Below are positions 3,101-26,627 of a stretch of DNA of 54,274 nucleotides, piece after piece. The notes under the pieces are model-generated. The model saw nothing but the letters and a program-made list of their open reading frames with translations, did no database searches and was not told the DNA's origin. The position numbers were made by a program, and so were the translations under genes. Each line of letters starts with the position of its first letter. The stretch's first letter is position 1. Origin of the DNA: Lachnospiraceae bacterium (GTDB taxonomy: Bacteria; Bacillota; Clostridia; Lachnospirales; Lachnospiraceae); the NCBI GenBank assembly GCA_030523345.1, contig JAUNIR010000006.1:1-54274 (forward strand), given 5' to 3'.

Positions 3101-3218
3101 TCAATACAATGCAGCACCTACATATTCGGGAAGATATGATATGTGGCAGTATACTTCTAAGGGAAGTGTCAATGGTATCAGCGGATATGTTGATATGAAT
3201 AAATGTTATTACAGATAG
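162..3218 (+). CDS. Membrane-anchored GH25 lysozyme with Ig-like and cell-wall-binding repeats
   Basis: A 1018-residue cell-wall muramidase. The order seen is: a highly charged cytoplasmic N-terminus (1-157, lysine/arginine-rich near 32-70); one membrane span (about 158-180) making it a type II protein; an extracellular stretch; a cysteine-rich segment (about 475-563) made of two CxxC-type units; two Big_2-like Ig domains (about 565-645 and 647-728); a choline-binding-like repeat pair (about 773-817, GWQTIDGVKCYF); and a C-terminal GH25 domain (about 824-1018). GH25 markers are GIDVSKYQ at about 826 and the catalytic DxE in FMDCES at about 917-920. It should cleave the MurNAc-GlcNAc bond outside the cell. 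AGGGAAG at 151-157 precedes the start. Its place between rmlA and rmlC suggests wall remodelling coupled to polysaccharide assembly (inference). Confidence 0.9.
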   Translation: MFSRDNRGDDLFANSTFDTSNPDKIIIREKEAKRKVRRRVKKGTKDQVLAKKEAIKKADKVKVVKSKKTEKLAYDTTSFDFIDLDSSSRADDKDFRLPRLSEINKKRDDFEKDDLGSDFRRSSADWKDSKIPDYSALNDLSDSSFGGGFFDGFKSMSALQWIAAGLALVLFGSSIMTTNVYANLQCKDNRDQAFSKLSTYEDTTFEQVAASVEDIEIPISMEEATPEVGKVLSLVLSSVEKDLKIKLVDEDDTLVKHVPWSVTVESSDGNSSEEVDDDQDGIIHMTDVNAGDYSVTLNPNDSLADFELPMAAQMVSVKAKVEYKVIANIKDEIKSEKEINVAAEDVAGNQAADQEAAPPPAMADTVEFVESTKTINGEDYVEAAVDLTKTATIKKNNLFASLLEKVKATASGFKGSSLAYTAILADETPATEPGQENQSPEPSTESKPDQPATEPDPTPTHNLKYVSNGDGTHTEKCQDSGCSETGNTGDCTFKGDNSKQACDICGASNPNYKAAHVCSLSTVQNNESVHTIKCTDGCDKGYPKDEGHSFDGNGQCTKCGYKKSEPTLTINATTLTLTVGEATTLSASVTPSAPVKYSSSDASVASVDGSGRITAVKAGTATITASASVDGKNPSATCQVTVNAKAEEASIQLSGNTSVKVNEKTTITAKITPEGKVIEGVTFSDTSIAKSSVDGFTITVQGLKAGSTKMTVKSDNGKESTVTINVDGGEYSDDAQLYDAFKNALYVKDGDTYRLAKYRDYKRDKTQKFYIKQETFLYTGWQTIDGVKCYFDKDHNRVTGKQIIGGVEYDFGETGSVSTGSGTLGIDVSKYQPSINWSAVKSSGVDYVIIRCGYRGSSTGVLVEDPYFKSHIKGAKAAGLKVGVYFFTTAVTEAEAVEEASMCAYLCKGYGLDFPIFMDCESSPRPGYNGMSSGQRTAIVKAFCNTIRSAGYTPGVYANKTWLSSYMNAGELSGYKIWLAQYNAAPTYSGRYDMWQYTSKGSVNGISGYVDMNKCYYR

Positions 3219-3228
3219 GAAATGGAAA

Positions 3229-3780
3229 ATGGGTAAAATTACAGTAGAAACATGCGAAATAGAAGGCCTCAAGGTCATTACACCACAGGTGTTTGGTGAT
3301 AACAGAGGCTATTTTATGGAGACATACAATTATAATGATTTTAAAGAGGCTGGAATTGATGAAGTATTTGTTCAGGATAACCAGTCCGCTTCAAAGAAGG
3401 GTGTTATTAGAGGATTACATTTCCAGATTAATTATCCACAGGATAAGCTTGTAAGGTGTATTAGAGGAGAGGTCTTCGACGTGGCTGTAGACCTACGAGA
3501 AGGATCAAAAACTTATGGTAAGTGGTTCGGTGTAATACTTTCTGAGGAGAATAAGAAGCAGTTCTTTATTCCAAAGGGATTTGCTCATGGATTTGTTGTT
3601 TTGTCAGATTACGCAGAATTTGCTTATAAATGTACAGATTTCTATCATCCTAATGATGAGGGTGGTATTATTTGGAATGATCCAGAGGTAGGCGTTGAAT
3701 GGCCAATTGATGGAATCGAACTTACATTTTCGGAAAAAGACACTAAGTGGCCAACACTTAAAGAAAGAGATAATGCTTAA
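3229..3780 (+). CDS. rmlC: dTDP-4-dehydrorhamnose 3,5-epimerase RmlC
   Basis: A 183-residue cytoplasmic cupin enzyme, the normal length for the family. It epimerises dTDP-4-keto-6-deoxyglucose at C3 and C5, the third step to dTDP-L-rhamnose. The RGLHFQ motif carries the catalytic histidine, GDNRGYFMETY near the N-terminus is typical, and the YKCTDFYHP segment holds the expected tyrosine. It starts 10 bases after the lysozyme stop with AGGAAATGG as ribosome binding site. Its TAA shares one base with the next start (TAATG), so translation is probably coupled to the exporter. rmlB and rmlD are not in the window. Confidence 0.95.
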   Translation: MGKITVETCEIEGLKVITPQVFGDNRGYFMETYNYNDFKEAGIDEVFVQDNQSASKKGVIRGLHFQINYPQDKLVRCIRGEVFDVAVDLREGSKTYGKWFGVILSEENKKQFFIPKGFAHGFVVLSDYAEFAYKCTDFYHPNDEGGIIWNDPEVGVEWPIDGIELTFSEKDTKWPTLKERDNA

Positions 3781-4784
3781 TGGACAAGAAGAAAAAGATT
3801 GTAATTGCAGTTGTGACTGCGTTAGTTGTAGCACTTGATTTATACATTCTGTTACATCACAATCCATTAGATAATCACACACAGGAGATTATAAAGAAAG
3901 TAATCTCCTGTGTGATTCTTAATGCTATATATGTTGTATTTCTAATGGGATACGATAAAATTGTTATTTTGCCTTTAGAGTTACTACAGAACAGACGTCT
4001 TATTTGGAAGCTTGCAAAGAATGATTTCAAGACTAGATATGCTGGTTCGTATCTTGGTATATTCTGGGCATTTGTGCAACCTATTATTACTGTTTTACTT
4101 TACTGGTTTGTCTTTACAATTGCGATTCCTTCAAGGGCTACAACGCTAAACGGAGATTTAGAAATCCCGTATGTTCTATGGCTTATTGCAGGTATTGTTC
4201 CATGGTTTTACTTCTCAGAAGCATTATCAAGTGGAACCAATGCTCTTCTTGAGTATAATTACCTTGTTAAAAAAGTAGTATTTAAGATTAGTATTCTGCC
4301 AATAATAAAGCTTATTTCAGCATTATTTGTGCATTTATTCTTTATTGCATTTACATTAATTTTATATTCATGTTATGGAATGTATCCAGATCTTTATACG
4401 CTTCAGATTTTCTATTATTCAGCATGTATGTTTGCATTTACATTAGGTCTTTGCTACATTACGTGTTCTATAGTTATATTCTTTAGAGATCTAGGTCAGA
4501 TTATATCAATAGCACTTCAAGTAGGAATTTGGGCAACACCAATTCTCTGGAATCTGAATTCAATGTTAGCATCTCATCCACAGTATGCATGGATGAAATT
4601 TATATTCAAGCTAAATCCAATGAACTATATTGTTGAAGGATATAGAAATGCGCTTATAGATAAGATATGGTTCTACGAGACGTTCTATTCAACTGCTTAT
4701 TTCTGGATATTAACACTTTGCTTGTTTGCCGTTGGAGCTTTAGTGTTTAAGAGATTGAAAGTTCATTTTGCGGATGTGTTGTAG
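3780..4784 (+). CDS. ABC-2 polysaccharide exporter permease (Wzm type) with an N-terminal extension
   Basis: A 334-residue membrane protein that pairs with the ATPase just downstream to move a lipid-linked polysaccharide across the membrane. The core begins at about residue 73 with the family pattern RLIWKLAKNDFKTRYAGS followed by LGIFWAFVQP, then about six membrane spans and the C-terminal LNPMNYIVEGYR region. Residues 1-70 are extra: they add two predicted spans (about 7-26 and 40-57) not usual in Wzm/TagG proteins. An in-frame ATG at 3945 (residue 56) would remove most of the extension, but no ribosome binding site precedes it. The 3780 start overlaps the rmlC stop. A perfect inverted repeat lies within codons 33-45. 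Confidence 0.88.
   Translation: MDKKKKIVIAVVTALVVALDLYILLHHNPLDNHTQEIIKKVISCVILNAIYVVFLMGYDKIVILPLELLQNRRLIWKLAKNDFKTRYAGSYLGIFWAFVQPIITVLLYWFVFTIAIPSRATTLNGDLEIPYVLWLIAGIVPWFYFSEALSSGTNALLEYNYLVKKVVFKISILPIIKLISALFVHLFFIAFTLILYSCYGMYPDLYTLQIFYYSACMFAFTLGLCYITCSIVIFFRDLGQIISIALQVGIWATPILWNLNSMLASHPQYAWMKFIFKLNPMNYIVEGYRNALIDKIWFYETFYSTAYFWILTLCLFAVGALVFKRLKVHFADVL
3878..3914 (+). other. Perfect 14-bp inverted repeat inside the exporter permease gene
   Basis: CACACAGGAGATTA (3878-3891) and TAATCTCCTGTGTG (3901-3914) are exact reverse complements separated by nine bases. In mRNA they would form a long uninterrupted stem about 100 nt after the permease start codon. No T-run follows, so it does not look like a standard intrinsic terminator. 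It could slow ribosomes, protect mRNA or be a processing site; the function is unknown. Confidence 0.6.
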
Positions 4785-4833: not shown

Positions 4834-6129
4834 ATGGAAAATAAACAGCAGGAAGTGGCCATTAAGGTCGAAAACTTAACAAAGATATATAAGTTATACG
4901 ATAGAAACAGAGATCGTTTGAAAGAGGCACTACATATCGGAAGACATGTAAATGCGCATGATCATTATGCTTTAAATGACGTTAATTTTACTGTAAATAC
5001 TGGAGAAACAGTAGGTATTATTGGAACAAATGGTTCTGGTAAATCTACAATTCTTAAAATTATTACAGGTGTATTAAATCCTACGCACGGAAGTGTTACC
5101 ATTAATGGCCGTGTTTCAGCTCTTCTTGAGCTTGGTGCAGGATTTAATATGGAATTTACTGGTATTGAGAATATTTATCTTAACGGTACGATGATTGGGT
5201 TTTCTGAAGAGGAAATAGATGCCAAGCTTCAAGATATTCTCGATTTTGCAGACATAGGTGATTTTGTATACCAGAAGGTTAAGACATACTCAAGTGGTAT
5301 GTTTGTTCGTCTCGCATTCGCTGTGGCAATTAACATCGATCCTGAAATCCTTATAGTTGACGAGGCTTTGTCAGTAGGTGATGTGTTCTTCCAAAATAAA
5401 TGTTATAGAAAATTCGAAGAGTTTAAGAAACAGGGTAAGACAATTCTTTTTGTAAGCCATGACTTAAGTTCTATTAGTAAATATTGTGATAGAGTTGTTC
5501 TTCTTGAAAAGGGCAAAAAAATTGGTGAAGGTGAGCCAAAAGAAATAATCGATATGTACAAGAAGGTTCTTGTTGGCCAGCTTGATAAAATATCTGATAC
5601 AAATAAGAGCCAGAGTCTTTCTACAGGTGCAAAGTGGAAGGATCAGATGAATCTTAATCCTAACCATGACGAGTATGGCAGTGGTCTTGCAGAATTTGAA
5701 GATTACTGTGCATACGATAATGAAGGTAATATCACAAATACAATTATTAAGGGTGAATCCTTTACTGTTAAACTGAAAATCAGATTTTTCGAAAAAATAC
5801 AGGATCCTATTTTCGCAGTTTCATTTAAAAACATGCAGGGAACTGAAATAACTGGAACAAATACAATGTTCGAAAAAATGACTATAGATACTCCTGAGCC
5901 AGGAGATGTTTATATTGCTACATTCACACAAGATATGAGCCTTCAGGGTGGAGAATACCTTGTGTCTTTAGGATGTGTCGGATATAAGGACGGTAATTTT
6001 ACTGTATACCACAGAGTTTATGACATCTTTAATCTGACAGTTATTTCATCTAAAAACACAACAGGCTTTTATGATATGAACACTATTATTACAGTGAGAA
6101 AAGAAGGCGAAGATGGAAGCGAAGAATAA
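4834..6129 (+). CDS. ABC exporter ATPase with Wzt-like C-terminal domain
   Basis: A 431-residue ATPase powering the permease encoded just upstream. Residues 1-245 are the nucleotide-binding domain: Walker A GTNGSGKST (64-72), signature YSSGM (152-156), Walker B ILIVDE (172-177) and switch H209. Residues from about 285 to the end form a second, beta-rich domain absent from simple TagH ATPases and placed as in Wzt. In Wzt-type exporters this domain reads the modified non-reducing end of the finished glycan. Finding it next to a methyltransferase/kinase gene that overlaps it by 17 bases fits that mechanism (inference). The ribosome binding site is weak (AAGG about 11 bases upstream). Confidence 0.93.
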   Translation: MENKQQEVAIKVENLTKIYKLYDRNRDRLKEALHIGRHVNAHDHYALNDVNFTVNTGETVGIIGTNGSGKSTILKIITGVLNPTHGSVTINGRVSALLELGAGFNMEFTGIENIYLNGTMIGFSEEEIDAKLQDILDFADIGDFVYQKVKTYSSGMFVRLAFAVAINIDPEILIVDEALSVGDVFFQNKCYRKFEEFKKQGKTILFVSHDLSSISKYCDRVVLLEKGKKIGEGEPKEIIDMYKKVLVGQLDKISDTNKSQSLSTGAKWKDQMNLNPNHDEYGSGLAEFEDYCAYDNEGNITNTIIKGESFTVKLKIRFFEKIQDPIFAVSFKNMQGTEITGTNTMFEKMTIDTPEPGDVYIATFTQDMSLQGGEYLVSLGCVGYKDGNFTVYHRVYDIFNLTVISSKNTTGFYDMNTIITVRKEGEDGSEE

Positions 6130-8431
6130 AGAGGTAATTGGAAACATAGCCCTTAATTTAGACTACTATAAGGGCGAAGATCTTTATTCAGAGGGTGCGG
6201 CTGAGGACGTGCTCCTTGATTTAGTTACTAGATATTCAGAATCGGATTACGAACATATTATACAAAATTCAAAGTCTTGGAGTGTAATGTACCATCTTTC
6301 TCATATAAGAGAAAATATTGTTACATGGCTTCCTATAGGTAAGAAATCTAGAGTACTTGAAATAGGTGCCGGTTGTGGCGCGGTGACAGGAGGACTTGCT
6401 AAGCTTGCGGGGCATGTTGATTGTATAGAGCTTTCTAAAAAACGTAGTACTATTAATGCGACAAGGCATAGAGAGTATAGTAATATAGACATTTATGTAG
6501 GTAATTATACGGACGTAGAGCCTAATTTAACAGAAAAATACGATTACGTAACTTTAATAGGTGTACTTGAATATGCAGGTAGCTATATTCAGTCAAAGGA
6601 ACCATATACAGATCTCCTTAGAAGTGCAGCTAGTCATCTCAAGCCGGATGGCAAGCTACTAGTAGCAATTGAGAATAAATTTGGACTTAAATACTTTGCT
6701 GGCTGTAAGGAAGATCATACAGGCGAATACTTTGGCGGAATTGAGGGATATAGAAACAATACAGGTGTGAAGACATTCTCAAAGGGGTCGCTAGAAAGGA
6801 TGATGGAGCAGCTTAATTTGAAGGGGAAGTTTTATTATCCATATCCAGATTATAAGCTTGCACATACAATTTATTCTGACGATATGTTACCTAATGAGGG
6901 GGAACTTAATACAAACCTTCGTAACTTTGATAATGATAGAGTTGTTTTATTTGATGAGACAAAGGCATTCGATTCAATAATTGAGGAAGGAAAATTTGAT
7001 TATTTCTCAAATTCATTCCTTGTTGTCATGACAAAAGAGGATATCTACGATTGTCTTAAAGTTGTTCCAATTTTTGCAAAGTATGCAAATGAGCGAAGAA
7101 ATGACCTAAGAGTTGCAACAATTCTTTATAAGAATAAGGGGGATAAACCTCTTGTATATAAGTGCGCGGGTAATAACACATCTAATACGCATATAAGAAA
7201 TATAAGTAAAAATTACAATATATTATGTGAAAGATGTCAAGATACAAAGTTTGAACCGAATAAATGCCAATATATTCAGGGCGAAGAGCCAGTTCCGTTA
7301 GTGGCGGGCGCTACATCTAAAGCTATTGATGTAATTAACTTTGAGTATATCAGTGGCATGTCAATGGACAGTTATATATTTGATTTAGCTGATGCTAAGA
7401 AATATGATGAAATAGAAAAAATCATTAGAAAATATATAAGTGAAGTGGCATTACTAAATGGTAATAAGCCATTTAAACAGACTCAGAGATTTGAGGAAGT
7501 ATTTGGAAAATATAAGTTTGATAGCTCATATACTGGTGCAGAAGAGAGCGATTTTGATATAATCTTTTCTAATATTATTTTTGATAAGGAAAAAGGTGCG
7601 GATGGCCCTTGGAATCTAATAGATTATGAGTGGTGTTTTGATTTCCCAATTCCTGACAGATTTATGGCATTTAGAGGATTGTACTATTATTTTGAGTTCT
7701 CAAATCCAACATTAAAAGTTCATTTTGAAAGCGAAAATGAGAATGTATACCAAAGATTTGGATTTACAGAAGACGAAATCAAGATGTTTATAGAGATGGA
7801 ACATAATTTCCAGGTGTTTACAATTGGTGGAGTTGCGAGTCTTGAAGTGTTACACGCCATTATGCCTACAAATACTGTATTCCTTGATAACATTCTTAGA
7901 GAGAGTAATGCCTTAAAGAATCTTAACAACCCTAAGATATATTATAGTTACGGAGAAGGCTATTCGGATGACCGTAGAATATATATAATTCCTAAGGTTG
8001 ATGGAGCAAAGGTTGAAATGGATATACCGCTTGCATCTAATATGCGAGGCGTGAGAATAGACCCTACAGAATATGATTCTATAGTTTCTATTAAGGAGAT
8101 ATATTTAGTATCAAAATCTGGAGAGGTAAAATGGGTAGATGAGTTTTTAATGAATGGATATATGGTCAGTGATAAGACTATTTTGTATAACACGAATGAT
8201 GCCCAGATTATTGTAGATAATATTAGTCCTAACATGGATAAATTGCATATATCATATGATGTATCAATGTTTTTGCCTAACATATATGAAGATTTCATGA
8301 AATTGTGTAAACAAAAGCAGAAAGAGGAGTATAAAGAGCCAGGATTTAAAGATAAACTGCTTATGAAGCTTCATCTTAAGAGAAGACCGGCGCCTTTGCC
8401 AGAGGGATACCATTACAATGTGGTTAAGTAA
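6113..8431 (+). CDS. Methyltransferase fused to a kinase-like domain (WbdD-like chain-terminator candidate)
   Basis: A 772-residue cytoplasmic protein. The N-terminal part is a class I SAM methyltransferase with motif I VLEIGAGCGAVTGG at 81-94 and acidic IEL at 105-107. The central part resembles APH/choline-kinase folds: DFDIIFSN at 480-487 matches the catalytic-loop spacing HxDx4N (with Asp in place of His), and NLIDYEW at 501-507 matches the metal-binding IDxE segment. A less characterised beta-rich region and a basic tail follow. In E. coli O9a, WbdD has a methyltransferase-kinase order and caps the O-antigen for export by a Wzt-C transporter. The same neighbours occur here, so capping is a plausible role, but it is not proven; the kinase assignment rests on motif spacing alone. 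Confidence 0.72.
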   Translation: MEAKNKEVIGNIALNLDYYKGEDLYSEGAAEDVLLDLVTRYSESDYEHIIQNSKSWSVMYHLSHIRENIVTWLPIGKKSRVLEIGAGCGAVTGGLAKLAGHVDCIELSKKRSTINATRHREYSNIDIYVGNYTDVEPNLTEKYDYVTLIGVLEYAGSYIQSKEPYTDLLRSAASHLKPDGKLLVAIENKFGLKYFAGCKEDHTGEYFGGIEGYRNNTGVKTFSKGSLERMMEQLNLKGKFYYPYPDYKLAHTIYSDDMLPNEGELNTNLRNFDNDRVVLFDETKAFDSIIEEGKFDYFSNSFLVVMTKEDIYDCLKVVPIFAKYANERRNDLRVATILYKNKGDKPLVYKCAGNNTSNTHIRNISKNYNILCERCQDTKFEPNKCQYIQGEEPVPLVAGATSKAIDVINFEYISGMSMDSYIFDLADAKKYDEIEKIIRKYISEVALLNGNKPFKQTQRFEEVFGKYKFDSSYTGAEESDFDIIFSNIIFDKEKGADGPWNLIDYEWCFDFPIPDRFMAFRGLYYYFEFSNPTLKVHFESENENVYQRFGFTEDEIKMFIEMEHNFQVFTIGGVASLEVLHAIMPTNTVFLDNILRESNALKNLNNPKIYYSYGEGYSDDRRIYIIPKVDGAKVEMDIPLASNMRGVRIDPTEYDSIVSIKEIYLVSKSGEVKWVDEFLMNGYMVSDKTILYNTNDAQIIVDNISPNMDKLHISYDVSMFLPNIYEDFMKLCKQKQKEEYKEPGFKDKLLMKLHLKRRPAPLPEGYHYNVVK

Positions 8432-10379
8432 AAAGAATTTAAAAGCGGAATATGATACTGAGCTGCTAAAACAGACAGAAAGCTACACGTATTATATAAA
8501 ACATGTAGAAAACAATGATAAAGACGTAATAAATGAAGGGGAACATGAAAATGTCCCCTTTATTTGCATGAAAGAAACAGATAATTGTGAATCTGAGGAA
8601 CAAACAGAATTAGTAGTTTCTTTAATAGAAGAGACCAATACATTTAGGACATATGAATGTGGTGACTATTTCATTTACGAAAGCGTGAAAGGTGTCTCTA
8701 GCGATGAGGAGAGGCTAGAATTAGTCACAAATGCTTATAAATTAAATGCAGATTATATTTATAGTGATGTAGATAATATCACATGTGATGGAAAAAGGAT
8801 AGCTCCGTTCTATAAACCATGCTTTTCAAAGGATACAGCGAAGTGTTTTGATTACTTTTCAGATTTTTATGCAGTAAAAAAGATGAAAAGTAAAATGGAT
8901 ATTCAGTGTTATGAAAAAATATCACACATCGAAAAAGTGCTATTTCACTACATTATAGATAATAACAATTGTAATCCAAATGAAGTATACAAATTAAATA
9001 ACAAGGGATATGAAACAAGTGATTTTTATGTGTCTGAAATAGGAATTCAGGAAGATAAAGACTGTATAAGCATAATTATCCCTTCAAAGGACAGGCCAGA
9101 TCTTATAAGGACATGTCTTGCAGGTATAGAAAAAGCAAAAATTAAATCAGGAATTAACACTTTAAATGTGGTTATAGTTGATAATGGAAGTACAGATATC
9201 CACAAAAAAGAGATAACAGATGTTATAAATGGTGTAAAACAGCGGAATACGGGGATTTCTGTATCATACCTGTATGAACAGGCAGAATTTAACTTTTCGT
9301 ATATGTGTAATCGAGGAGCAAAAGAGTCTACTGGAAAATATCTATTATTCATGAATGATGATATAGAAATTACAGATGAGCAGTTCCTTCTTAAAATGCT
9401 TTATTTTGCAAAAATGGATCATGTAGGTGCTGTTGGATGTAAGCTTTTATATCCAGGAGAAGAGAGACGAATTCAGCATGTGGGAATTACATGCCTTAAA
9501 TACCCAGGACCATCACATAAGCTTTCTACATTTTCAGATGATGAGGTACTGTATTTTGGAAGAAATAGAGGGGTTCATAATGTGCTTGCTGTTACGGCTG
9601 CTTGCCTTATGGTTTCAAACGAAAAATTCTTCAAAATTGGCGGTTTTCATGATAAAATGAAGGTTGGCTATAACGATGTGGATTTATGCGTTTCTCTTTA
9701 TGAAAATGGATATTTGAATGTTGTTAATAATGAAGCGTGTCTCGTACATCATGAGTCGATTTCAAGAGGTAGAGACAGCGCTAGTGAAGAGAAGCTAAAA
9801 CGTCTTGATCAGGAAAGAAATCTTTTATATGAAAGGCACCCTTGGCTACTTACAGAAGGTGACCCTTATTACAATGTTAATCTTGCCGAAGATTTTCTTG
9901 ATTATAGAGTAAATGTTATTCCTGATTTTGAAAGAAGAGATTACGAATCTCTGCAAAAGCAAGAATATAATGCTTTTGTTAACAAGGCAGAACATGCTGC
10001 ACAAAAAGCCAATGCGGTTCCAGCAACTAAAAATATGTTCATGAATGTGGAAGAGATTTCAAGAAACAGAAATTTCATGGAGATAAGAGGCTGGGCGCTT
10101 ATTAATAAGAAAATCAATTATCTATATGACACATTTATTACAGTAATGGGCGAGGATGGCAACTTCTATACGTATGAAACGGTGCCGGTAAAAAGAGACG
10201 ATCTTAAAGAAGTGTTCCCTGAGGCTCTTAATACGGAGCTTTCTGGATTTTTTGCAAGGGTGCCTGCATCAAGTGTTAAGTTGTCAGATGATGGTGAACT
10301 GTTAAGATGTGGCGTATTGATAATAAATAAACAGACTGGAAAGAAGTATTATGCAGGATTTAGAAAAGCAGACATTTGA
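8418..10379 (+). CDS. GT2 glycosyltransferase with a decayed N-terminal GT2-like half
   Basis: A 653-residue protein. The active-looking GT2 domain spans about 213-455: SIIIPSKDRPDLI (217-230), VIVDNGSTD (252-260), the DxD-like MNDDIE (312-317), GGFHDKMKVGYNDVDLC near 408-424 and the HHESISRG end. Residues about 100-190 still resemble the first GT2 domain of the downstream 679-residue protein (ADYIYSD, a KP element, a VLFHY element) but lack the nucleotide-binding start, DHDD and FDGSQDHD motifs. About 200 C-terminal residues form an extra domain. It transfers an unidentified sugar during chain assembly. It overlaps the previous gene by 14 bases and the next by 29. Confidence 0.85.
   Translation: MWLSKKNLKAEYDTELLKQTESYTYYIKHVENNDKDVINEGEHENVPFICMKETDNCESEEQTELVVSLIEETNTFRTYECGDYFIYESVKGVSSDEERLELVTNAYKLNADYIYSDVDNITCDGKRIAPFYKPCFSKDTAKCFDYFSDFYAVKKMKSKMDIQCYEKISHIEKVLFHYIIDNNNCNPNEVYKLNNKGYETSDFYVSEIGIQEDKDCISIIIPSKDRPDLIRTCLAGIEKAKIKSGINTLNVVIVDNGSTDIHKKEITDVINGVKQRNTGISVSYLYEQAEFNFSYMCNRGAKESTGKYLLFMNDDIEITDEQFLLKMLYFAKMDHVGAVGCKLLYPGEERRIQHVGITCLKYPGPSHKLSTFSDDEVLYFGRNRGVHNVLAVTAACLMVSNEKFFKIGGFHDKMKVGYNDVDLCVSLYENGYLNVVNNEACLVHHESISRGRDSASEEKLKRLDQERNLLYERHPWLLTEGDPYYNVNLAEDFLDYRVNVIPDFERRDYESLQKQEYNAFVNKAEHAAQKANAVPATKNMFMNVEEISRNRNFMEIRGWALINKKINYLYDTFITVMGEDGNFYTYETVPVKRDDLKEVFPEALNTELSGFFARVPASSVKLSDDGELLRCGVLIINKQTGKKYYAGFRKADI
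8536..8560 (+). other. GAAA-tetraloop hairpin in the start of the 653-residue GT gene
   Basis: AAGGGGAACAT (8536-8546) and ATGTCCCCTT (8551-8560) pair with one bulged A around a GAAA loop, followed by TTATTTG. A GNRA-type loop on a C/G-rich stem is a stable RNA fold. It lies about 120 nt into the coding sequence, at codons 40-48. It resembles a weak terminator but has only a short T-rich tail. Role unknown. Confidence 0.45.
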
Positions 10380-12390
10380 GTACTATAAGGAACTTTACGA
10401 GAAGGAACTTAAGAAAAACGAAGAACTCACAGAAGCTTTAGTTACAGCTGAGACCCAAAGAGATGACTATAAGTTCCATCTCGATAACATCCATAATTCT
10501 CTATTATGGCGTGTAATGTATCCTTTCAGAATGTGCTGGAGTCATTTTAAAAATATTTTCATTAGAATCAGAAGATACAGTAGTTTTAAACAGCTCAAGA
10601 AAAAGATACAGAGTAAGATTATTGAGAGAAAAGCATATAAGAGCTACGGAACATTAAGCATGCCATCGGAGGATGAGGTAAAGCGTCAAAGAGATATAAA
10701 ATTCTCAAAAGACATCACAATCTCTATTCTTGTTCCTTTGTATAACACTCCGGAAAAGTTCTTAAGGGAAATGATAGAATCTGTAGTTAACCAGACATAT
10801 GTTAAATGGGAACTTTGTCTTGCTGATGGATCGGACGCTGAACATACAGATGTCGCACGTATTTGTGACGAATATGTAAAAAAAGACGAGGAGACAGCTA
10901 AGTCATACGGTCTTAGTAAGAGTCGAATTGTATACAAGAAACTGGAGAAAAACCTTGGTATTTCTGGAAATACCAATGCATGTCTTGAAATGGCTACAGG
11001 TGAGTACATTGGTCTTTTTGATCATGATGACATATTACATCCAGAGGCTCTTTTTGAGTATATGCAGGTAATATGTAATGAAGATGCAGACTATATTTAC
11101 TGTGATGAGACAACATTTACTGGAAACTCCATCGATAAGATGATTACTCTTCATTTTAAGCCTGATTTCGCTATAGATAATTTACGTGCGAATAACTATA
11201 TATGTCATTTTTCAGTATTTTCAAGAAATCTTATAGATAAGACAGGGCTTTTTAGAAGCGAATTTGATGGTAGTCAGGATCACGATTTGATATTGAGACT
11301 CACAGCAAATGCGGAAAAGATTGTTCACGTACCTCGAATTCTTTATTATTGGAGATCTCATGCAGGATCTGTTGCATCCGACATTAATGCTAAGTCATAC
11401 GCTATTGACGCGGCTAAGGGTGCGGTAGCGGCTCACTTGACTAGCCAGGGATTTTCAGACTTTAAGATTGAAAGCTCACGTGCCTTTGAAACAATTTTCA
11501 GAATTAGATATCACTTAGTAGATAAACCGCTTGTATCAATACTTATTCCAAATAAGGATCATGTGGCTGATTTGAGAAGATGTATTGATTCAATAACAAC
11601 TAAGACATCTTATGAAAAATATGAAATCATCATAATAGAGAACAATTCAACAGATGCTGACACATTCTCATATTATGAGACTCTTGAAAAGCATCCTGCA
11701 ATCAAGGTTGTTAAATTTGAAGGAGAATTCAACTATTCTAAAATTAATAACTTTGGTGCAAAGGAAGCGAAGGGAGAATATCTTATTCTCCTCAATAATG
11801 ACACAGAAGTTGTTACAAGAAACTGGATTGAGGAACTTCTCATGTATGCGCAGAGGGAAGACGTAGGTGCTGTTGGATGTATGCTTTACTATGATGATTA
11901 TGCAATACAGCATGCAGGTATAGTAATTGGACTTGGTGCTCATAGAACAGCAGGCCATACTCACTACAGAATGGGTAAAGATAATCTCGGATATATGGGA
12001 AGGCTTTGCTATGCACAGAACGTGACTGCAGTTACAGGTGCATGCATGATGACAAAGAAGTCACTGTTTGATGAGCTAGGCGGACTTGACGAGGAATTTG
12101 CTGTTGCACTTAATGATGTTGATTACTGCTTAAGACTTAGAAAACTTGGAAAGCTTAATGTATTTACTCCATTTGCAGAGTTATTCCACTATGAATCAAA
12201 ATCTAGGGGAACGGACGTAACGGAAAAGGCATCTAAGGAAAATGCAGATAGATATAATAAGGAGTGCGAACTCTTTAGAACGAGATGGAAAGAGGAACTT
12301 GAAAAGGGAGATCCATATTATAATCCTAATTTTTCGTTAGACTATAGTAACTATGTATTAAAGGGAAACCCGAAAGGAATGGTAGAGTGA
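10351..12390 (+). CDS. Bifunctional tandem GT2 glycosyltransferase with N-terminal coiled coil
   Basis: A 679-residue protein. Residues 1-50 are charged and heptad-like, then SLLWRVMYPFR (50-60), a common lead-in to these enzymes. GT2 domain 1 spans about 122-380: ISILVPLYNTPE, DHDD at 224-227, FDGSQDHD at 305-312. GT2 domain 2 starts near 390: VSILIPNKDHV, ENNSTD, NNDTEVV, GACMM, LNDVDYCLRL, HYESKSRG. Both halves keep their donor-site acidic motifs, so two linkages may be made by one protein. It overlaps the previous gene by 29 bases. It is the intact member of three related tandem proteins in this locus. Confidence 0.9.
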   Translation: MQDLEKQTFEYYKELYEKELKKNEELTEALVTAETQRDDYKFHLDNIHNSLLWRVMYPFRMCWSHFKNIFIRIRRYSSFKQLKKKIQSKIIERKAYKSYGTLSMPSEDEVKRQRDIKFSKDITISILVPLYNTPEKFLREMIESVVNQTYVKWELCLADGSDAEHTDVARICDEYVKKDEETAKSYGLSKSRIVYKKLEKNLGISGNTNACLEMATGEYIGLFDHDDILHPEALFEYMQVICNEDADYIYCDETTFTGNSIDKMITLHFKPDFAIDNLRANNYICHFSVFSRNLIDKTGLFRSEFDGSQDHDLILRLTANAEKIVHVPRILYYWRSHAGSVASDINAKSYAIDAAKGAVAAHLTSQGFSDFKIESSRAFETIFRIRYHLVDKPLVSILIPNKDHVADLRRCIDSITTKTSYEKYEIIIIENNSTDADTFSYYETLEKHPAIKVVKFEGEFNYSKINNFGAKEAKGEYLILLNNDTEVVTRNWIEELLMYAQREDVGAVGCMLYYDDYAIQHAGIVIGLGAHRTAGHTHYRMGKDNLGYMGRLCYAQNVTAVTGACMMTKKSLFDELGGLDEEFAVALNDVDYCLRLRKLGKLNVFTPFAELFHYESKSRGTDVTEKASKENADRYNKECELFRTRWKEELEKGDPYYNPNFSLDYSNYVLKGNPKGMVE

Positions 12391-14117
12391 TGACTTATAA
12401 AGAGAAGTACGAATTTTGGAGAAGTGATAAATATTTTGATAAAGAAACACATGACGAACTCGAGTCAATCAAACATGATGAAGCAGAAATAGAGGATAGA
12501 TTTTATAAGGATCTTGAGTTTGGTACAGGTGGTTTAAGAGGCGTAATTGGTGCAGGTACTAACAGAATGAATCTTTTCACTGTTAGAAAAGCAACTCAGG
12601 GACTTGCCAATTATATAACAAAACAGGGTACAGGCGATAAGGGTGTTGCTATAGCATATGACTCGAGATATATGTCTAAGGAATTTGCCGATGAAGCAGC
12701 TCTTTGTCTTAATGCCAACGGAATTAAATCATTTGTATTCAGTACACTTCATCCAACACCAATGCTTTCATTTGCAGTGAGATATCTTGGCGCTACAGCA
12801 GGTATTGTAATTACAGCTAGCCATAATCCGCCTGAATATAACGGATATAAAGTTTACTGGGAGGACGGTGCTCAGATTACACCACCAAGAGACGCACATA
12901 TTATCGCTGAAGTTAATGCTGTCGAAAGTTACAGAGATGCTAAGACAATGGGTAAGGAGGCAGCTATAGCAGGCCGTCTTTACAATGTAATAGGTGATGA
13001 CCTTGATGATGCATACATGGAAGAGCTTAAAAAGCTTATCATTCATCCAGATGTTATTAAGGAAGTTGCAGATGATATTAAGATTGTGTATACACCATTC
13101 CACGGAACAGGAAACATCCCTGTAAGGAGAATTTTAGAGGAACTCGGATTCAAGCATGTATATGTTGTTAAAGAGCAGGAACTCCCTGATCCAAAATTTA
13201 CTACACTTGAGTATCCTAATCCAGAAGATGCTAAGGCTTTTGATCTTGCACTTAAGCTTGCAAAAGAAGTTGATGCGGATATCGTGCTTGCAACAGACCC
13301 TGACGCAGATAGACTCGGAATATATGCTAAGGATGACAAGAGTGGTGAATATAAGGCGTTCACTGGTAATATGTCAGGAATGCTTATTGCAGAATACATT
13401 TTAAGAGAGCGTACTAAGATGGGCACAATGCCTGAGAACCCTGCTCTTGTTAAGACAATTGTTACTACTAACCTTGCAGATCCTATTGCTGCAGACTATA
13501 ACGTTCGTTTGGTAGAAGTACTTACAGGATTTAAGTTCATTGGTGAACAGATTAAGTGGTTTATCGAACAGGGAACATATAATTATGTATTCGGACTTGA
13601 GGAAAGCTATGGATGTCTTGCTGGTACTCACGCAAGAGACAAAGACGCCGTAGTTGCAGTTATGTGTCTCTGTGAAGTTGCTGCGTTCTGCAAGAAACAG
13701 GGAATTACAGTATGGGATCAGATGATCAATATCTATGAGAAATATGGATATTTTGCAGAAGGAATTCATACAATAACACTTAAGGGAATCGAAGGCGCTG
13801 ATAAGATTAAGTCTATGATGGAAGCTATAAGAACAAATCCACCAAAGGAATTTGCAGGTCTTAAAGTTTTAAGCTTCAGAGATTATAAGCTTAACGAAAT
13901 TACAGATATAGCTACTGGAAACAAAACAGAAACAGGACTTCCAACATCAAATGTTCTCTATTTTGATCTTGAAAATAATTCATGGTGTTGTATGAGACCT
14001 TCAGGAACAGAACCTAAGATTAAGTTCTATATGGGAATCAAGGGAGAGAACCTCGATGATGCTGATGCTAAGTTAGAGGCTCTTAAGACAGCAGTAATAG
14101 AGGCGGTAGAGGCTTGA
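12390..14117 (+). CDS. pgcA: Alpha-phosphoglucomutase / phosphomannomutase
   Basis: A 575-residue phosphohexomutase of the long PgcA class. It interconverts hexose-6-phosphate and hexose-1-phosphate and so feeds nucleotide-sugar synthesis. The active-site phosphoserine lies in TASHNPPEYNGYK (Ser144), the metal loop is TDPDADRLG, the sugar-binding loop is GLEESYG, and the phosphate loop is PSGTEPKIKFY. ATG 12390 shares one base with the preceding stop (TGATG); a GTG three bases earlier is in frame and sits at slightly better distance from AAAGGAA at 12373-12379. Whether glucose or mannose phosphate is preferred cannot be told here. The symbol follows the B. subtilis enzyme of the same class. 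Confidence 0.92.
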   Translation: MTYKEKYEFWRSDKYFDKETHDELESIKHDEAEIEDRFYKDLEFGTGGLRGVIGAGTNRMNLFTVRKATQGLANYITKQGTGDKGVAIAYDSRYMSKEFADEAALCLNANGIKSFVFSTLHPTPMLSFAVRYLGATAGIVITASHNPPEYNGYKVYWEDGAQITPPRDAHIIAEVNAVESYRDAKTMGKEAAIAGRLYNVIGDDLDDAYMEELKKLIIHPDVIKEVADDIKIVYTPFHGTGNIPVRRILEELGFKHVYVVKEQELPDPKFTTLEYPNPEDAKAFDLALKLAKEVDADIVLATDPDADRLGIYAKDDKSGEYKAFTGNMSGMLIAEYILRERTKMGTMPENPALVKTIVTTNLADPIAADYNVRLVEVLTGFKFIGEQIKWFIEQGTYNYVFGLEESYGCLAGTHARDKDAVVAVMCLCEVAAFCKKQGITVWDQMINIYEKYGYFAEGIHTITLKGIEGADKIKSMMEAIRTNPPKEFAGLKVLSFRDYKLNEITDIATGNKTETGLPTSNVLYFDLENNSWCCMRPSGTEPKIKFYMGIKGENLDDADAKLEALKTAVIEAVEA

Positions 14118-15268
14118 TACAACTGCTTATTAGTAATAAAAAAATAAGAACAGCTTTATTAGTTATAATGGCATTATTGGCCTGTGTATCGTTATTACAA
14201 GGTGTCAGAAATGCTGTTAGAGATTCTCAGGATTTTCAGTGGGATGCTATGAAAGTTTTCTCAATGAGAATAAATCCTTATGACGAATCAGACAGTATGA
14301 ACCCAAGCGGAATATTAGATGAGTATGGCTACGATGAGTATTACCTTCAGATGGAGGCTAATCAGTTTCCATCCCTCTTAATGCTTCTTCTGCCATTTGC
14401 CCCATTAAAGCCGCTTACAGCGAGATACGTTTGGATTGTATGTAATCTTGTGTTTACGTTTTTAATAATTCTGTTACTGAGAAAAACCTTCCTTAAAGAT
14501 TTGGATGGTTACTGGTTCAGTATTATTAGCCTGTTAATGATAGCAGGAACTCCTTACAGGAATCAGATGGGGGTTGGACAGCATACACTTTTTGCATTTT
14601 GTCTGTTCTTAGTAGCGGTATATTATTCTGAATATTGTGAAAAAAGAAACGCGATAGTAACAACGTTGGCTCTGTTTGTTTGTTACTTTAAATACACATT
14701 AACAGTGCCACTAGTTTTGTATTTTGTATATAAGAAAAGATATAAAGAGGTCATAATTTCTGCATTTATGCATGTTATTTTGACCGGAGTAAGCGCTTGG
14801 TGGTTATCAGACAGTTTTCTTAATATGATAATTAAGCCTCTCAAGGTATCATCTAATCTGGCAGCAGAAGGAGGACTTGATATTTCAGCGTTGCTTAAAG
14901 GCTCGCCTATATCATATTTTCTTGCGCTTATTATAATGGTAGTTCTGTTAGCTATGGCTGTAAAGCTTCCGGAAGGATGTGACAGATCATACATATCAGT
15001 GCTGGCGCTATGGTCATTAATAATTACATATCACAGGACATATGATTTCTTTGTTATGATTGTGGCAGTGGCATTATTCCTTGAAATGAAGGAATTAGAT
15101 AAATTAAAAATATATTATATAGTAACTACGCTGGCGGTTTTCTTTGTACTGCGTCTGTTCCATGAAGCAGATTTAAGTAAGATTGTTGTTGGAGCAATGT
15201 ATTATGCTCTGACGTTTGTAGTTACATATAAGGTTATGAGGTTAATATGGACAAGAAAAGCAAGCTGA
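14114..15268 (+). CDS. GT87/DUF2029-like integral membrane glycosyltransferase
   Basis: A 384-residue polytopic protein with about nine or ten hydrophobic spans, beginning at about residues 14-30. The first outer loop carries acidic residues followed by an NPYDE element, and a later segment reads QFPSLLMLLLPF, both reminiscent of GT-C enzymes of the GT87 family. These use polyprenyl-phosphate sugars as donors on the outer membrane face. It starts with TTG, overlapping the preceding TGA (TTGA), with GAGG-type sequence upstream. With the GtrA-like gene next door it may form a lipid-linked sugar side-chain system. The family call is by pattern and is not certain. Confidence 0.65.
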   Translation: MIQLLISNKKIRTALLVIMALLACVSLLQGVRNAVRDSQDFQWDAMKVFSMRINPYDESDSMNPSGILDEYGYDEYYLQMEANQFPSLLMLLLPFAPLKPLTARYVWIVCNLVFTFLIILLLRKTFLKDLDGYWFSIISLLMIAGTPYRNQMGVGQHTLFAFCLFLVAVYYSEYCEKRNAIVTTLALFVCYFKYTLTVPLVLYFVYKKRYKEVIISAFMHVILTGVSAWWLSDSFLNMIIKPLKVSSNLAAEGGLDISALLKGSPISYFLALIIMVVLLAMAVKLPEGCDRSYISVLALWSLIITYHRTYDFFVMIVAVALFLEMKELDKLKIYYIVTTLAVFFVLRLFHEADLSKIVVGAMYYALTFVVTYKVMRLIWTRKAS

Positions 15269-15702
15269 TCAAGCAAATTCTTAAATTCGGAGTTGTTGGG
15301 GGATTATCTTTTGTAATCGATTTTGTTATCACACTTATAGTTTCGACTGTCTTAAGAACAGTTGGTATGAGTGTTGAAAATGCAGCTACAGTGGCTGGAC
15401 TTTTCGGTTTTATGATTTCGCTCATATTTAATTATATTATGAGTATGAAGTTCGTATTTGAAAGAAAAGAAGACATGGATAGAAAGAAGGAGTTCATAAT
15501 TTTTGCTCTTCTATCAGCTATAGGTCTTGGAATTAACGAACTTATTCTTTATTTTGGAGTTTTGATTTGCAATACACAGATGCCTGCGATAGTTGATGCA
15601 TATCCTACAATTGTTACAGCAGGAGTTAAGATAATAGCAACAGGTATTGTCATGGTATACAACTTTGTAAGTAGAAAGATGACACTTGAGAAAAAAGATT
15701 GA
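15247..15702 (+). CDS. GtrA-family membrane protein
   Basis: A 151-residue protein with four predicted membrane spans and the GtrA hallmarks: FGVVGGLSFVIDF in span 1 and FNYIMSMKFVF after span 2. GtrA proteins are thought to help flip polyprenyl-phosphate-linked sugars or to assist such transfer. The gene overlaps the upstream membrane glycosyltransferase by 22 bases, so the two are probably made together, which fits a flippase-plus-transferase pair. The substrate is unknown. Confidence 0.85.
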   Translation: MDKKSKLIKQILKFGVVGGLSFVIDFVITLIVSTVLRTVGMSVENAATVAGLFGFMISLIFNYIMSMKFVFERKEDMDRKKEFIIFALLSAIGLGINELILYFGVLICNTQMPAIVDAYPTIVTAGVKIIATGIVMVYNFVSRKMTLEKKD

Positions 15703-19349: not shown

Positions 19350-20759
19350 ATGATTAAGGACAATCAGCGAATACTAAATCAGATACATGTTGTTCTTGAC
19401 GCTATTGTAACTGCACTTATGTATATTGCAGCATGGTGGTTTAAGTTCCAGTCAGGAATTATTGATTCGGGATATGCTCTGTCAAGACAGTATTATTTTA
19501 GAGCACTTTACATTATTGTGCCGGCATATTTAATCTTGTATTATCAGTTTGATCTGTACGGATCAAAGCGTGTTAGTGGCAGAAAAAGGGAACTTTTTAA
19601 TGTCATTAAGGCTAATGCAGTAGGAATTGTTGGATGTATAGTTATCCTCTACATGATTAATCAGTCACACTTCTCAAGAGAAATGATTTTCTTCTTTGGA
19701 ATGTTCAATATTGTGGCCATTACTGCAGAGAGAAACGCAATCAGATATTGCTTAAGATATTTCAGAAAGAAAGGCTTTAACCTAAAGCACATACTTCTCG
19801 TAGGTTATTCGAAATCTGCCGAGATGTATATTAATAGAATCCGTATGAATCCTCAATGGGGATACAATATTCGTGGTGTTCTTGATAACAAAGTTGAAGC
19901 GGGAACTATGTATAAAGGAATTAAGGTTCTTGGAAAGATTGAGAATCTTTCGGTTATTCTTCCTGAAAACAAGTTAGACGAAATTGTTATTACACTTCCT
20001 CTTGAAGAGTACGGTAAGCTTGAAAAAATCGTTGCTCTATGCGAAAAATCAGGTGTTCATACTAAGTTCGTTCCTGATTATTCAGACTTTATTTCAGGCC
20101 GTCTTGTTACTGAAGACATGCAGGGACTCCCTGTTATAAATATTAGAGCTATTCCTTTGGCGAATGCTTTTAATAAGATAGTTAAGCGTTTTGTGGATAT
20201 TGTTACAGCGATAATTGGTATAATTATTTCTTCTCCTGTAATGCTTGCCACAGCTATTGCTATTAAGAGTACAAGTAAGGGACCTCTTATTTTCAAGCAG
20301 GAGCGTGTAGGACTTCATAACAAGCCATTTTATGTTTATAAGTTTAGAACTATGTATATTAAGGAAGAACTTGATGAGGAGTTACAGGACATAAATTGGA
20401 CTACAAGAGATGATCCTAGAGTTACAAAGGTAGGAAAATTCCTAAGAAAGACAAGTATTGATGAGCTCCCTCAGTTTTTCAATATTTTATATGGTCAGAT
20501 GTCACTTGTCGGACCTCGTCCTGAGCAGACAGCATTCGTAGAGCAGTATAAGGAAGAAATTCCTAGATATATGATTAAGCATCAGGTACGTCCAGGTCTT
20601 ACAGGTTGGGCACAGGTTAATGGACTTAGAGGCGATACATCCATTGAGGAACGTATTGAGCATGACTTGTATTATATTGAAAACTGGACGCTAGGATTTG
20701 ATATAAAAATAATGTTTTTAACTATCTTTAAAGGCTTTGTTAATAAGAATGCGTACTAA
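19350..20759 (+). CDS. Polyprenyl-phosphate hexose-1-phosphate transferase (chain initiator)
   Basis: A 469-residue membrane protein that starts a polysaccharide by moving a sugar-phosphate from a nucleotide sugar to undecaprenyl phosphate. About four spans occupy residues 12-125, then a Rossmann-like CoA-binding-type domain (about 140-260), then the catalytic bacterial sugar transferase domain from about 275. Seen there: the membrane-embedded helix, KFRTM, DDPRVTKVGKFLRKTSIDELPQ in two short runs with the catalytic Asp371-Glu372, VGPRPE, and GLTGWAQVNG. The length and order fit WbaP/CpsE-like enzymes that use glucose-1-P or galactose-1-P. It starts directly at the preceding stop. Confidence 0.95.
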   Translation: MIKDNQRILNQIHVVLDAIVTALMYIAAWWFKFQSGIIDSGYALSRQYYFRALYIIVPAYLILYYQFDLYGSKRVSGRKRELFNVIKANAVGIVGCIVILYMINQSHFSREMIFFFGMFNIVAITAERNAIRYCLRYFRKKGFNLKHILLVGYSKSAEMYINRIRMNPQWGYNIRGVLDNKVEAGTMYKGIKVLGKIENLSVILPENKLDEIVITLPLEEYGKLEKIVALCEKSGVHTKFVPDYSDFISGRLVTEDMQGLPVINIRAIPLANAFNKIVKRFVDIVTAIIGIIISSPVMLATAIAIKSTSKGPLIFKQERVGLHNKPFYVYKFRTMYIKEELDEELQDINWTTRDDPRVTKVGKFLRKTSIDELPQFFNILYGQMSLVGPRPEQTAFVEQYKEEIPRYMIKHQVRPGLTGWAQVNGLRGDTSIEERIEHDLYYIENWTLGFDIKIMFLTIFKGFVNKNAY

Positions 20760-26617: not shown

Positions 26618-26627
26618 TTAAAAGTAT

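What the first reader, a model, noticed from the sequence alone, without database searches (positions are those of the whole stretch)
4834..8431. Gram-positive counterpart of the WbdD/Wzt chain-capping export system
An exporter ATPase with a Wzt-like glycan-reading domain overlaps a gene for a methyltransferase fused to a kinase-like domain. In E. coli O9a, WbdD (methyltransferase-kinase) caps the chain and Wzt recognises the cap. The same logic here would set polymer length and license export in a Gram-positive. The kinase motif has Asp in place of the catalytic-loop His.
Basis: partly seen in the sequence, partly recalled or inferred. Interest (0 to 1): 0.72.

Follow-up and report, generated by a model that had tools for sequence, protein, structure and literature searches.

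The report
Phosphate-cap sugar exporter in gut bacteria
A probable gut Clostridia bacterium carries a gene pair that probably puts a methyl-phosphate tag on the end of a finished surface sugar chain and then lets only tagged chains out, a quality check worked out mainly in bacteria such as E. coli and Klebsiella.

Summary
Window 4834-6129 encodes a Wzt exporter ATPase with a complete carbohydrate-binding domain (CBD). The overlapping 6113-8431 encodes a methyltransferase, an unannotated domain that models as an APH/LicA-type kinase (K350, D482, N487, D504 invariant in 43 sequences), and a beta-sandwich. The cap-and-export reading is supported, but the relative is not WbdD (no detectable similarity). 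It is the methyltransferase-kinase terminator described in Klebsiella O7: six published SAM-site residues and the catalytic Asp map onto the window, through a Pseudomonas homologue that I take as O7-type. In 145 related genomes the enzyme and this CBD type occur together in 59 and singly in 3.

New lead: the CBD residue that stacks on a neutral methyl cap in Aquifex (Trp362; Trp also in E. coli O8) is Arg in E. coli O9 (methyl-phosphate cap) and in all 59 genomes with the pair, but aromatic in 11 of 12 relatives lacking the enzyme. This predicts a phosphate-bearing cap.

Not supported: a built-in chain-length ruler (no coiled coil here, though relatives have one) and a conserved Asp-for-His (the position varies). 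A Gram-positive phosphate cap has a chemical precedent in C. difficile.

The parts
3229..3780 (+). rmlC (dTDP-4-dehydrorhamnose 3,5-epimerase), points to rhamnose in the polymer
   Evidence: 61% identical to the gene annotated rfbC in L065; homologue just before wzm in L003, L005, L013, L066, L071; not scanned with Pfam
3780..4784 (+). wzm, exporter membrane subunit
   Evidence: Pfam ABC2_membrane 1.6e-14
4834..6129 (+). wzt, exporter ATPase with C-terminal carbohydrate-binding domain
   Evidence: Pfam ABC_tran and Wzt_C; near full-length match to a solved transporter ATPase
5662..6078 (+). Wzt_C carbohydrate-binding domain, residues 277-415
   Evidence: Pfam Wzt_C 3.5e-40, profile 1-143 of 143
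6013..6015 (+). Arg394 codon, at the position of A. aeolicus Trp362 that stacks on the methyl cap
   Evidence: alignments; Trp362 role from PMC9445017 passages
6113..8431 (+). methyltransferase-kinase chain terminator (772 aa), start overlaps end of wzt
6113..7042 (+). methyltransferase domain, residues 1-310; SAM-site residues Y25, Y60, G85, G87, E106, Y154
   Evidence: Pfam Methyltransf_23; a separate ORF in several relatives; residue map
7064..7828 (+). APH-like kinase domain, residues 318-572; K350, D482, N487, D504
   Evidence: AF2 model and Foldseek; 43-sequence conservation
7910..8269 (+). beta-sandwich domain, residues 600-719 (compare the Ig-like CBM of Klebsiella O7 ORF6)
   Evidence: AF2 strands at model 308-419; conserved RxDP and NG residues
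8270..8428 (+). short C-terminal tail, residues 720-772, no coiled coil
   Evidence: longest tail helix 18 residues (722-739), pLDDT below 50 from 738 on; similarly short tails in 29 genus relatives
8418..10379 (+). glycosyltransferase family 2 gene overlapping the terminator gene
   Evidence: Pfam Glycos_transf_2 9.3e-15
10351..12390 (+). two-domain GT2, candidate polymerase (role inferred)
   Evidence: Pfam Glycos_transf_2, 2 stretches; 39% match to the C-terminal part of the L064 terminator protein
14114..15702 (+). GT87 and GtrA pair, likely side-chain addition outside the membrane (role inferred)
   Evidence: Pfam
19350..20759 (+). Bac_transf priming sugar-phosphate transferase
   Evidence: Pfam 1.9e-71

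Best explanation
This is a chain-termination and export-licensing pair for a (probably rhamnose-containing) surface polysaccharide. While the lipid-linked chain grows in the cytoplasm, the APH-like kinase domain phosphorylates its non-reducing end, the methyltransferase domain methylates that phosphate, growth stops, and the Wzt CBD of the overlapping gene binds the methyl-phosphate cap so that only capped chains pass Wzm-Wzt. Shown: gene pair, domains, kinase-type predicted fold, invariant catalytic residues, conserved linkage, Arg in the cap pocket. Inferred: substrate, cap chemistry, order of reactions, export gating. In this genus the enzyme lacks the coiled-coil ruler, so chain length must be set another way, e.g. 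by competition between polymerase and terminator (inference).
For: Wzt_C and near full-length Wzt match. Kinase-type models from two proteins of the family, built on the same 13 sequences. Klebsiella O7 ORF6, shown in vitro to phosphorylate then methylate a terminal rhamnose, has the same MT, APH-like kinase, Ig-like domain order (PMC11231755 passages and section 11 part 1). Its SAM-site residues Y28, Y66, G91, G93, E112, Y158 sit at the same numbers in the P. asturiensis homologue L064 and align with identical residues in the window; D443 of L064 (next to the published D441) aligns with D482 here. L064 and L065 keep wzm-wzt-terminator order. Co-occurrence in 145 genomes: 59 with terminator and strong Wzt_C, 2 terminator only, 1 strong Wzt_C only, 83 neither; 54 of 58 strong same-contig pairs within 300 nt; 0 of 24 weaker Wzt_C loci adjacent. 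Arg at the Trp362 position in 59 of those 59 genomes (39, 3, 17); Arg in E. coli O9, Trp in E. coli O8 and Aquifex.
Against: No activity or glycan data. G143 has the terminator beside an ATPase lacking Wzt_C, and G106 has it with no Wzt_C found; G019 has the CBD-Wzt, Arg included, but no terminator found. With any Wzt_C match counted, 13 genomes have Wzt_C without the terminator. Arg rows need only 2 label changes on the CBD tree, so the association is largely shared descent. Two exceptions in the wider sample: L139 has an O7-type MT-kinase but His; L142 has a kinase+MT protein two genes away and Trp in a divergent CBD. K350, invariant in the clostridial set, aligns with His in L064 and Arg in L065, and the metal Asp with Glu in L065. 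Foldseek TM-scores are modest. The kinase region has no Pfam or meaningful PDB sequence hit. The Klebsiella O7 sequence itself was not in hand.
Confidence: 0.74

Rival explanations
1. Phosphate-only or other phosphodiester cap: the kinase works, but the methyltransferase acts elsewhere, or the mature end is phosphate or a cyclic phosphate, still read by the CBD.
For: C. difficile Ox247 S-layer glycan ends in 2,3-cyclophosphoryl-rhamnose; the words kinase and methyltransferase do not occur in that paper's main text.
Against: MT is better conserved than the kinase outside the genus (median 53% against 30%, 11 loci) and keeps all six SAM-site residues; methyl-phosphate is among the products of the O7 enzyme.
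Confidence: 0.12
2. The kinase is a pseudo-kinase and the system is a methyl-only capper like E. coli O8 or WsaE, with the kinase fold used to hold the glycan.
For: The His before the catalytic Asp is absent; the Citrobacter homologue L065 has Glu at the metal-Asp position, so change happens in the family.
Against: K350, D482, N487 and D504 invariant in 43 of 43; the CBD pocket has Arg, as in the methyl-phosphate O9 system, not Trp as in methyl-only O8 and Aquifex.
Confidence: 0.07
3. The enzyme is not a terminator but decorates the chain (side-chain phosphorylation or methylation), the Wzt CBD reading something else.
For: Many sugar methyltransferases act on internal residues (recalled); G106 and G143 carry the enzyme where no CBD was found; G019 keeps the CBD without the enzyme.
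Against: Tight linkage to a CBD-bearing Wzt; homology to a tested terminator; relatives carry the coiled coil typical of terminators.
Confidence: 0.07

Closest known systems
Klebsiella pneumoniae O7 ORF6 (N-terminal methyltransferase-kinase terminator), PMC11231755
   Same: MT, then an APH/AmiN-like kinase without recognisable family match, then an Ig-like domain; published residues mapped through L064; wzm-wzt-terminator order in its gamma-proteobacterial kin L064 and L065, with rhamnose genes in L065
   Different: Window protein ends soon after the Ig-like domain: no coiled coil and no fused GTs; host lacks a detectable LpxC; O7 kin were reported from alpha- and gammaproteobacteria and cyanobacteria
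E. coli O9a WbdD / Wzt
   Same: Same logic: kinase plus methyltransferase beside a Wzt; the O9 (strain HS) Wzt CBD also has Arg at the cap pocket
   Different: No sequence similarity found between the terminators; WbdD kinase is eukaryotic-kinase-like with a His two before the catalytic Asp and a long coiled coil
Geobacillus stearothermophilus WsaE / Wzt (S-layer rhamnan, 2-O-methyl cap)
   Same: Gram-positive, rhamnan, capping enzyme gene overlapping wzt, Wzt predicted to bind the cap
   Different: Methyl cap only, MT fused to GTs, no kinase (PMC2943079 passages)
C. difficile Ox247 S-layer glycan
   Same: Gram-positive, ABC exporter, dTDP-rhamnose genes, phosphate on the terminal rhamnose
   Different: Cap is 2,3-cyclophosphoryl-rhamnose; capping enzyme not identified in the passages read (PMC6254364)
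Aquifex aeolicus Wzm-Wzt CBD
   Same: Best PDB match over NBD and CBD; Asn313 conserved
   Different: Neutral 3-O-methyl cap read by Trp362 (PMC9445017 passages); Arg here

Membership tests
CBD-bearing Wzt (O-antigen type exporter ATPase) | NBD plus complete Wzt_C domain | tested here: met
CBD-bearing Wzt (O-antigen type exporter ATPase) | partner Wzm gene next to it | tested here: met
   ABC2_membrane at 3780-4784
CBD-bearing Wzt (O-antigen type exporter ATPase) | binds a chain cap and gates export | not testable with these tools
   needs binding and export assays
Klebsiella O7 ORF6-type MT-kinase terminator | MT with SAM-site residues Y28, Y66, G91, G93, E112, Y158 | tested here: met
   mapped through L064 to Y25, Y60, G85, G87, E106, Y154; the O7 sequence itself not in hand
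Klebsiella O7 ORF6-type MT-kinase terminator | APH-like kinase with catalytic Asp (D441) | tested here: met
   weak profile match to L064 kinase and following domain, 25.0 bits over two stretches
Klebsiella O7 ORF6-type MT-kinase terminator | Ig-like domain after the kinase | tested here: met
   beta-strand domain in both models; profile match including the RxDP motif in L064; Ig fold itself not tested by a separate fold search
Klebsiella O7 ORF6-type MT-kinase terminator | coiled-coil molecular ruler | tested here: not met
   absent from the window model; short tails in 29 genus relatives; present in L006 as a 106-residue helix. My heptad score did not separate the groups cleanly
Klebsiella O7 ORF6-type MT-kinase terminator | phosphorylates then methylates the terminal sugar | not testable with these tools
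   needs enzyme assay
WbdD (E. coli O9/O9a) | sequence homology of MT or kinase | tested here: not met
   best blastp E 0.55, to the C-terminal end of WbdD only; kinase profile -1.6 bits
WbdD (E. coli O9/O9a) | eukaryotic-type kinase with His two before the catalytic Asp | tested here: not met
   APH-type top hits, though protein kinases also score, and no WbdD among the 50 rows listed; no His two before the Asp in any of 43 sequences
WbdD (E. coli O9/O9a) | C-terminal coiled coil that recruits the polymerase | tested here: not met
   no long tail helix in the model

The most novel reading that the evidence does not exclude
The Wzt carbohydrate-binding domain carries a one-residue charge code: an aromatic residue at the Aquifex Trp362 position reads neutral (methyl) caps and Arg reads anionic caps (methyl-phosphate, and by the two loci beside a sulfotransferase-like gene perhaps sulfate). 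A conserved branch of gut Clostridia uses the Arg form with a terminator that has lost, or never had, the molecular ruler, so licensing of export and setting of length have come apart.
Probability: 0.35. Interest if true: 0.75.

Novelty: new variant of a known kind. Interest (0 to 1): 0.6.

Why it matters
If right, a quality-control step known mainly from Gram-negative O antigens runs in nearly every sampled species of one clostridial genus (terminator found in 36 of 37 genomes), on a surface polymer of unknown structure. It names candidate enzymes for phosphate capping in Gram-positives, where a phosphate cap has been seen chemically. It also offers a simple sequence test (one CBD residue) that may predict cap chemistry from genomes, and a natural ruler-less terminator in which chain-length control can be separated from export licensing.

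Tried and rejected
Direct WbdD homology: rejected. Profile search of the kinase region against PDB sequences: no meaningful hit, best E 0.29. Pfam and NCBIfam give no kinase for the window protein. The aspartate-for-histidine peculiarity as a family trait: rejected, the position varies. Coiled-coil detection by a home-made heptad score: tail scores of genus members (up to 0.60) overlap those of coiled-coil relatives (0.53-0.78), so I rest on tail length and the two AF2 models. Independent switches to Arg: not shown, the label needs 2 changes on a poorly resolved CBD tree of 74 rows. Papers not held: Mann, Kimber and Whitfield 2019 on chain-termination chemistry and Mann et al. 2019 on the O9a CBM, PMC6791312. 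The first may already list Firmicutes terminators and the second may already describe the Arg, so novelty claims reach no further than the papers listed (several of these listings were cut to the best 10-25 of many more).

Row handling. The 145-genome tables were typed into as one best terminator place per genome (61) and all 84 Wzt_C places. CBDs of the 59 genomes with the pair: 39 read, 3, 17, all Arg. The 52 'linked' rows are 51 distinct loci (L008 and L072 are the same); besides those 39 genomes they hold the genome-contig loci, L064, L065 and G019 (no terminator); L011 and L067 were dropped because their ATPases have no CBD. Of the 24 weaker Wzt_C loci in the relatives sample I read 12, one from each of the 12 genomes with Wzt_C but no terminator other than G019. 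In the phylum sample I fetched 27 of the 28 places outside the window's CBD type: 5 Arg and 22 not; L134, L137 and L138 align poorly. One downstream gene each was classified by Pfam or by reading for 4 of the 5 and 16 of the 22; Fisher p is 0.011 with L138 kept as negative and 0.003 with it dropped. The p of 0.004 counted 6 unscanned rows as negative and should not be used. The alignment took in several unrelated ORFs through a loose length filter; the clean repeat, gives the same residue map.
Full report
What is there. Two overlapping genes: an exporter ATPase at 4834-6129 and a 772-aa protein at 6113-8431. They sit in a polysaccharide cluster with rmlC, wzm, several GT2 genes, a phosphoglucomutase, GT87, GtrA, an esterase and a Bac_transf priming enzyme. 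The genome (G000, 91.6% complete) has no LpxC match, while the same search rings in 4 of 14 control genomes including E. coli. Of 16 named loci encoding relatives of the 772-aa protein, 14 are titled Lachnospiraceae, Clostridia, Clostridiales or Bacillota, one Methanobrevibacter and one Spirochaetia. A Gram-positive-type clostridial host is therefore inferred, not shown.

The exporter. The ATPase has a complete Wzt_C domain (3.5e-40) and aligns over residues 9-406 with the solved chain 8dku, whose residues match the A. aeolicus pocket described in PMC9445017. It is the only Wzt_C match (E up to 0.01) in this assembly.

The terminator. Residues 73-237 match Methyltransf_23; no Pfam or NCBIfam match lies beyond the MT domain. 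Homologues show that the MT and the rest are separable: in L004-L008, L012 and L015 they are two neighbouring ORFs. An alignment of 43 sequences of the second half has invariant R328, T336, K350, H360, F460, F464, D482, N487, D504-Y-E-W507, P514, R521 and F566. AlphaFold2 on residues 301-772 with 12 other sequences (mean pLDDT 74.9, pTM 0.56; mostly 74-95 over the kinase-like and beta parts) gives, by Foldseek, APH(3')-Ia first (E 9.6e-06), then protein kinases and MPH-E. A second model, of relative L006 (mean pLDDT 85.1, same 13 sequences), returns APH, MPH, pneumococcal LicA and PRPK. WbdD is not among the 50 rows listed in either. Query-normalised TM-scores are 0.19-0.32.

Which known enzyme. 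The Klebsiella O7 work describes ORF6: MT, an unannotated 223-aa domain resembling the AmiN kinase, an Ig-like domain, a coiled coil, then GTs; it phosphorylates position 3 of the terminal rhamnose and methylates the phosphate (incompletely in vitro), and D441A abolishes activity (PMC11231755, passages and section 11 part 1). I could not obtain that sequence. tblastn of plasmids found two gammaproteobacterial homologues (2 of 72,556 records): P. asturiensis L064 (1457 aa, with GTs) and Citrobacter L065 (649 aa), each directly after wzm and wzt genes, L065 also with rhamnose genes. In L064 the six published O7 SAM-site residues fall at exactly the published numbers, and each aligns with the same residue in the window; D443, N448 and D461 of L064 align with D482, N487 and D504. 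Against: K350 aligns with His in L064 and Arg in L065, and D504 with Glu in L065, so the invariant lysine of the clostridial set is not shared. The kinase profile scores 25.0 bits on L064 and 12.4 on L065, against -1.6 on the terminator of E. coli HS.

Linkage. In 145 related genomes the terminator is found in 61 (E 1e-10 or better) and Wzt_C in 72. With a strong Wzt_C (E below 1e-34) in 60, both occur in 59, terminator only in G106 and G143, Wzt_C only in G019, neither in 83; outside the window's genus 23 both, 2 and 0 single, 83 neither. Counting any Wzt_C match, 13 genomes have it without the terminator. Of 58 strong pairs on one contig and strand, 54 are within 300 nt, and none of 24 weaker Wzt_C loci is adjacent to the terminator. 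In the genus it is in 36 of 37 genomes, some on cut contigs. The exceptions are informative: G143 has MT, a kinase with a long repeated coiled coil (by reading), and RgpF (rhamnan synthesis) beside a 242-aa ATPase with no Wzt_C hit, and G106 fuses MT and kinase to RgpF; G019 has a 537-aa protein without Pfam hit, membrane-protein-like by reading, where the terminator should be.

The cap pocket. In A. aeolicus, Trp362 stacks on the 3-O-methyl cap and Trp362Leu essentially abolishes LPS binding (PMC9445017 passages). Aligned there, E. coli IAI1 (O8-type, methyl-only terminator) has Trp, E. coli HS (O9-type, kinase-methyltransferase) has Arg, and the window has Arg394; the O8/O9 chemistry is from PMC3482155 passages. 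All 59 of 59 genomes with the pair have Arg (39, 3, 17), as do G019, L064 and L065. The 12 CBDs read from relatives without the terminator have Y 5, W 4, F 2, N 1. In a second sample (299 genomes of the phylum, 29 with Wzt_C) the Arg rows outside this type are L121 and L122, each beside a gene with a Sulfotransfer_3 match of about 2e-05, slightly under Pfam's cut-off; L125 (MT, a divergent kinase-like ORF, beta domain, coiled coil, by reading) and L130 (O7-type); and L138, whose alignment is doubtful. Aromatic rows lie beside methyltransferases without a kinase hit by Pfam or by my kinase profile in L118-L120, L123, L124, L127, L128, L131-L133, and in L136, where only the beta domain matches; since the window's own kinase has no Pfam hit, an unknown kinase cannot be excluded there. 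Against: L139 has an O7-type enzyme and His; L142 has Trp with a kinase+MT protein two genes on. Shared descent explains much of the pattern (2 changes on the tree).

Constant cap, varied glycan. Outside the genus (11 loci) median identity to the window is NBD part 78, CBD 52, MT 53, kinase 30, beta domain 23 percent; within it (29 loci) 94.5, 78, 65, 35, 37. The parts expected to touch the methyl-phosphate (MT, CBD) hold steadier than those expected to touch the sugar (kinase, beta domain). This is an inference; L069 and L070 have MTs at only 29 and 39 percent.

Chain length. Known terminators carry a coiled-coil ruler (PMC11231755 passages). L006 has a 106-residue helix after the beta domain, and L002, L004 and L007 have similar-looking tails. 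The window model has at most an 18-residue helix there, and the 29 genus relatives have short tails, many with a PEG-containing motif near the end. So length control by this protein's own ruler is unlikely here.

Prior art. Methyl-capped rhamnan with a Wzt predicted to read it is known in G. stearothermophilus (PMC2943079 passages). A phosphate cap on terminal rhamnose is known in C. difficile Ox247, where the authors speculated on an O9a-like role (PMC6254364 passages). Among the papers listed by my searches none describes, by title and start of abstract, an MT-kinase terminator in Clostridia; those listings were partial, and the key 2019 survey is not held.

Verdict. A real and probably functional cap-and-license pair, a new variant of the O7-type system, in a host group where I saw no report of it. 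The Arg lead is the most testable new point.

Noticed in passing
L067 (G143) 5564-6931, minus strand: Kinase ORF followed by a coiled coil built of similar repeats of roughly 28 residues (by reading), then RgpF: a rhamnan cluster with a terminator but an exporter ATPase without Wzt_C.
   Followed up: partly
L065 8923-10872: Citrobacter plasmid terminator has Glu at the metal-binding Asp position and may have an impaired kinase, yet its Wzt CBD keeps Arg.
   Followed up: partly
L121 960-4484 and L122 3054-4232: Sulfotransferase-like proteins (sub-threshold Pfam match) sit directly after Arg-type Wzt CBDs: possible sulfate-capped glycans.
   Followed up: partly
L066 (G019) 6523-8136, minus strand: In one genus member a 537-aa membrane-like protein without Pfam hit stands where the terminator should be, although Wzt is 83% identical to the window's.
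   Followed up: partly
window 162-3218: GH25 muramidase with Big_2 domains and a sub-threshold choline-binding-type repeat just upstream of the glycan cluster.
   Followed up: no
window 25115-30032: MBOAT acyltransferase followed by a gene without Pfam hit, a CAAX-protease-like gene and two adjacent RimK-like ATP-grasp genes; looks like a small separate pathway.
   Followed up: no
L009 4443-6251: A Methanobrevibacter record carries a fused MT-kinase homologue; no Wzt_C was found in that genome.
   Followed up: no
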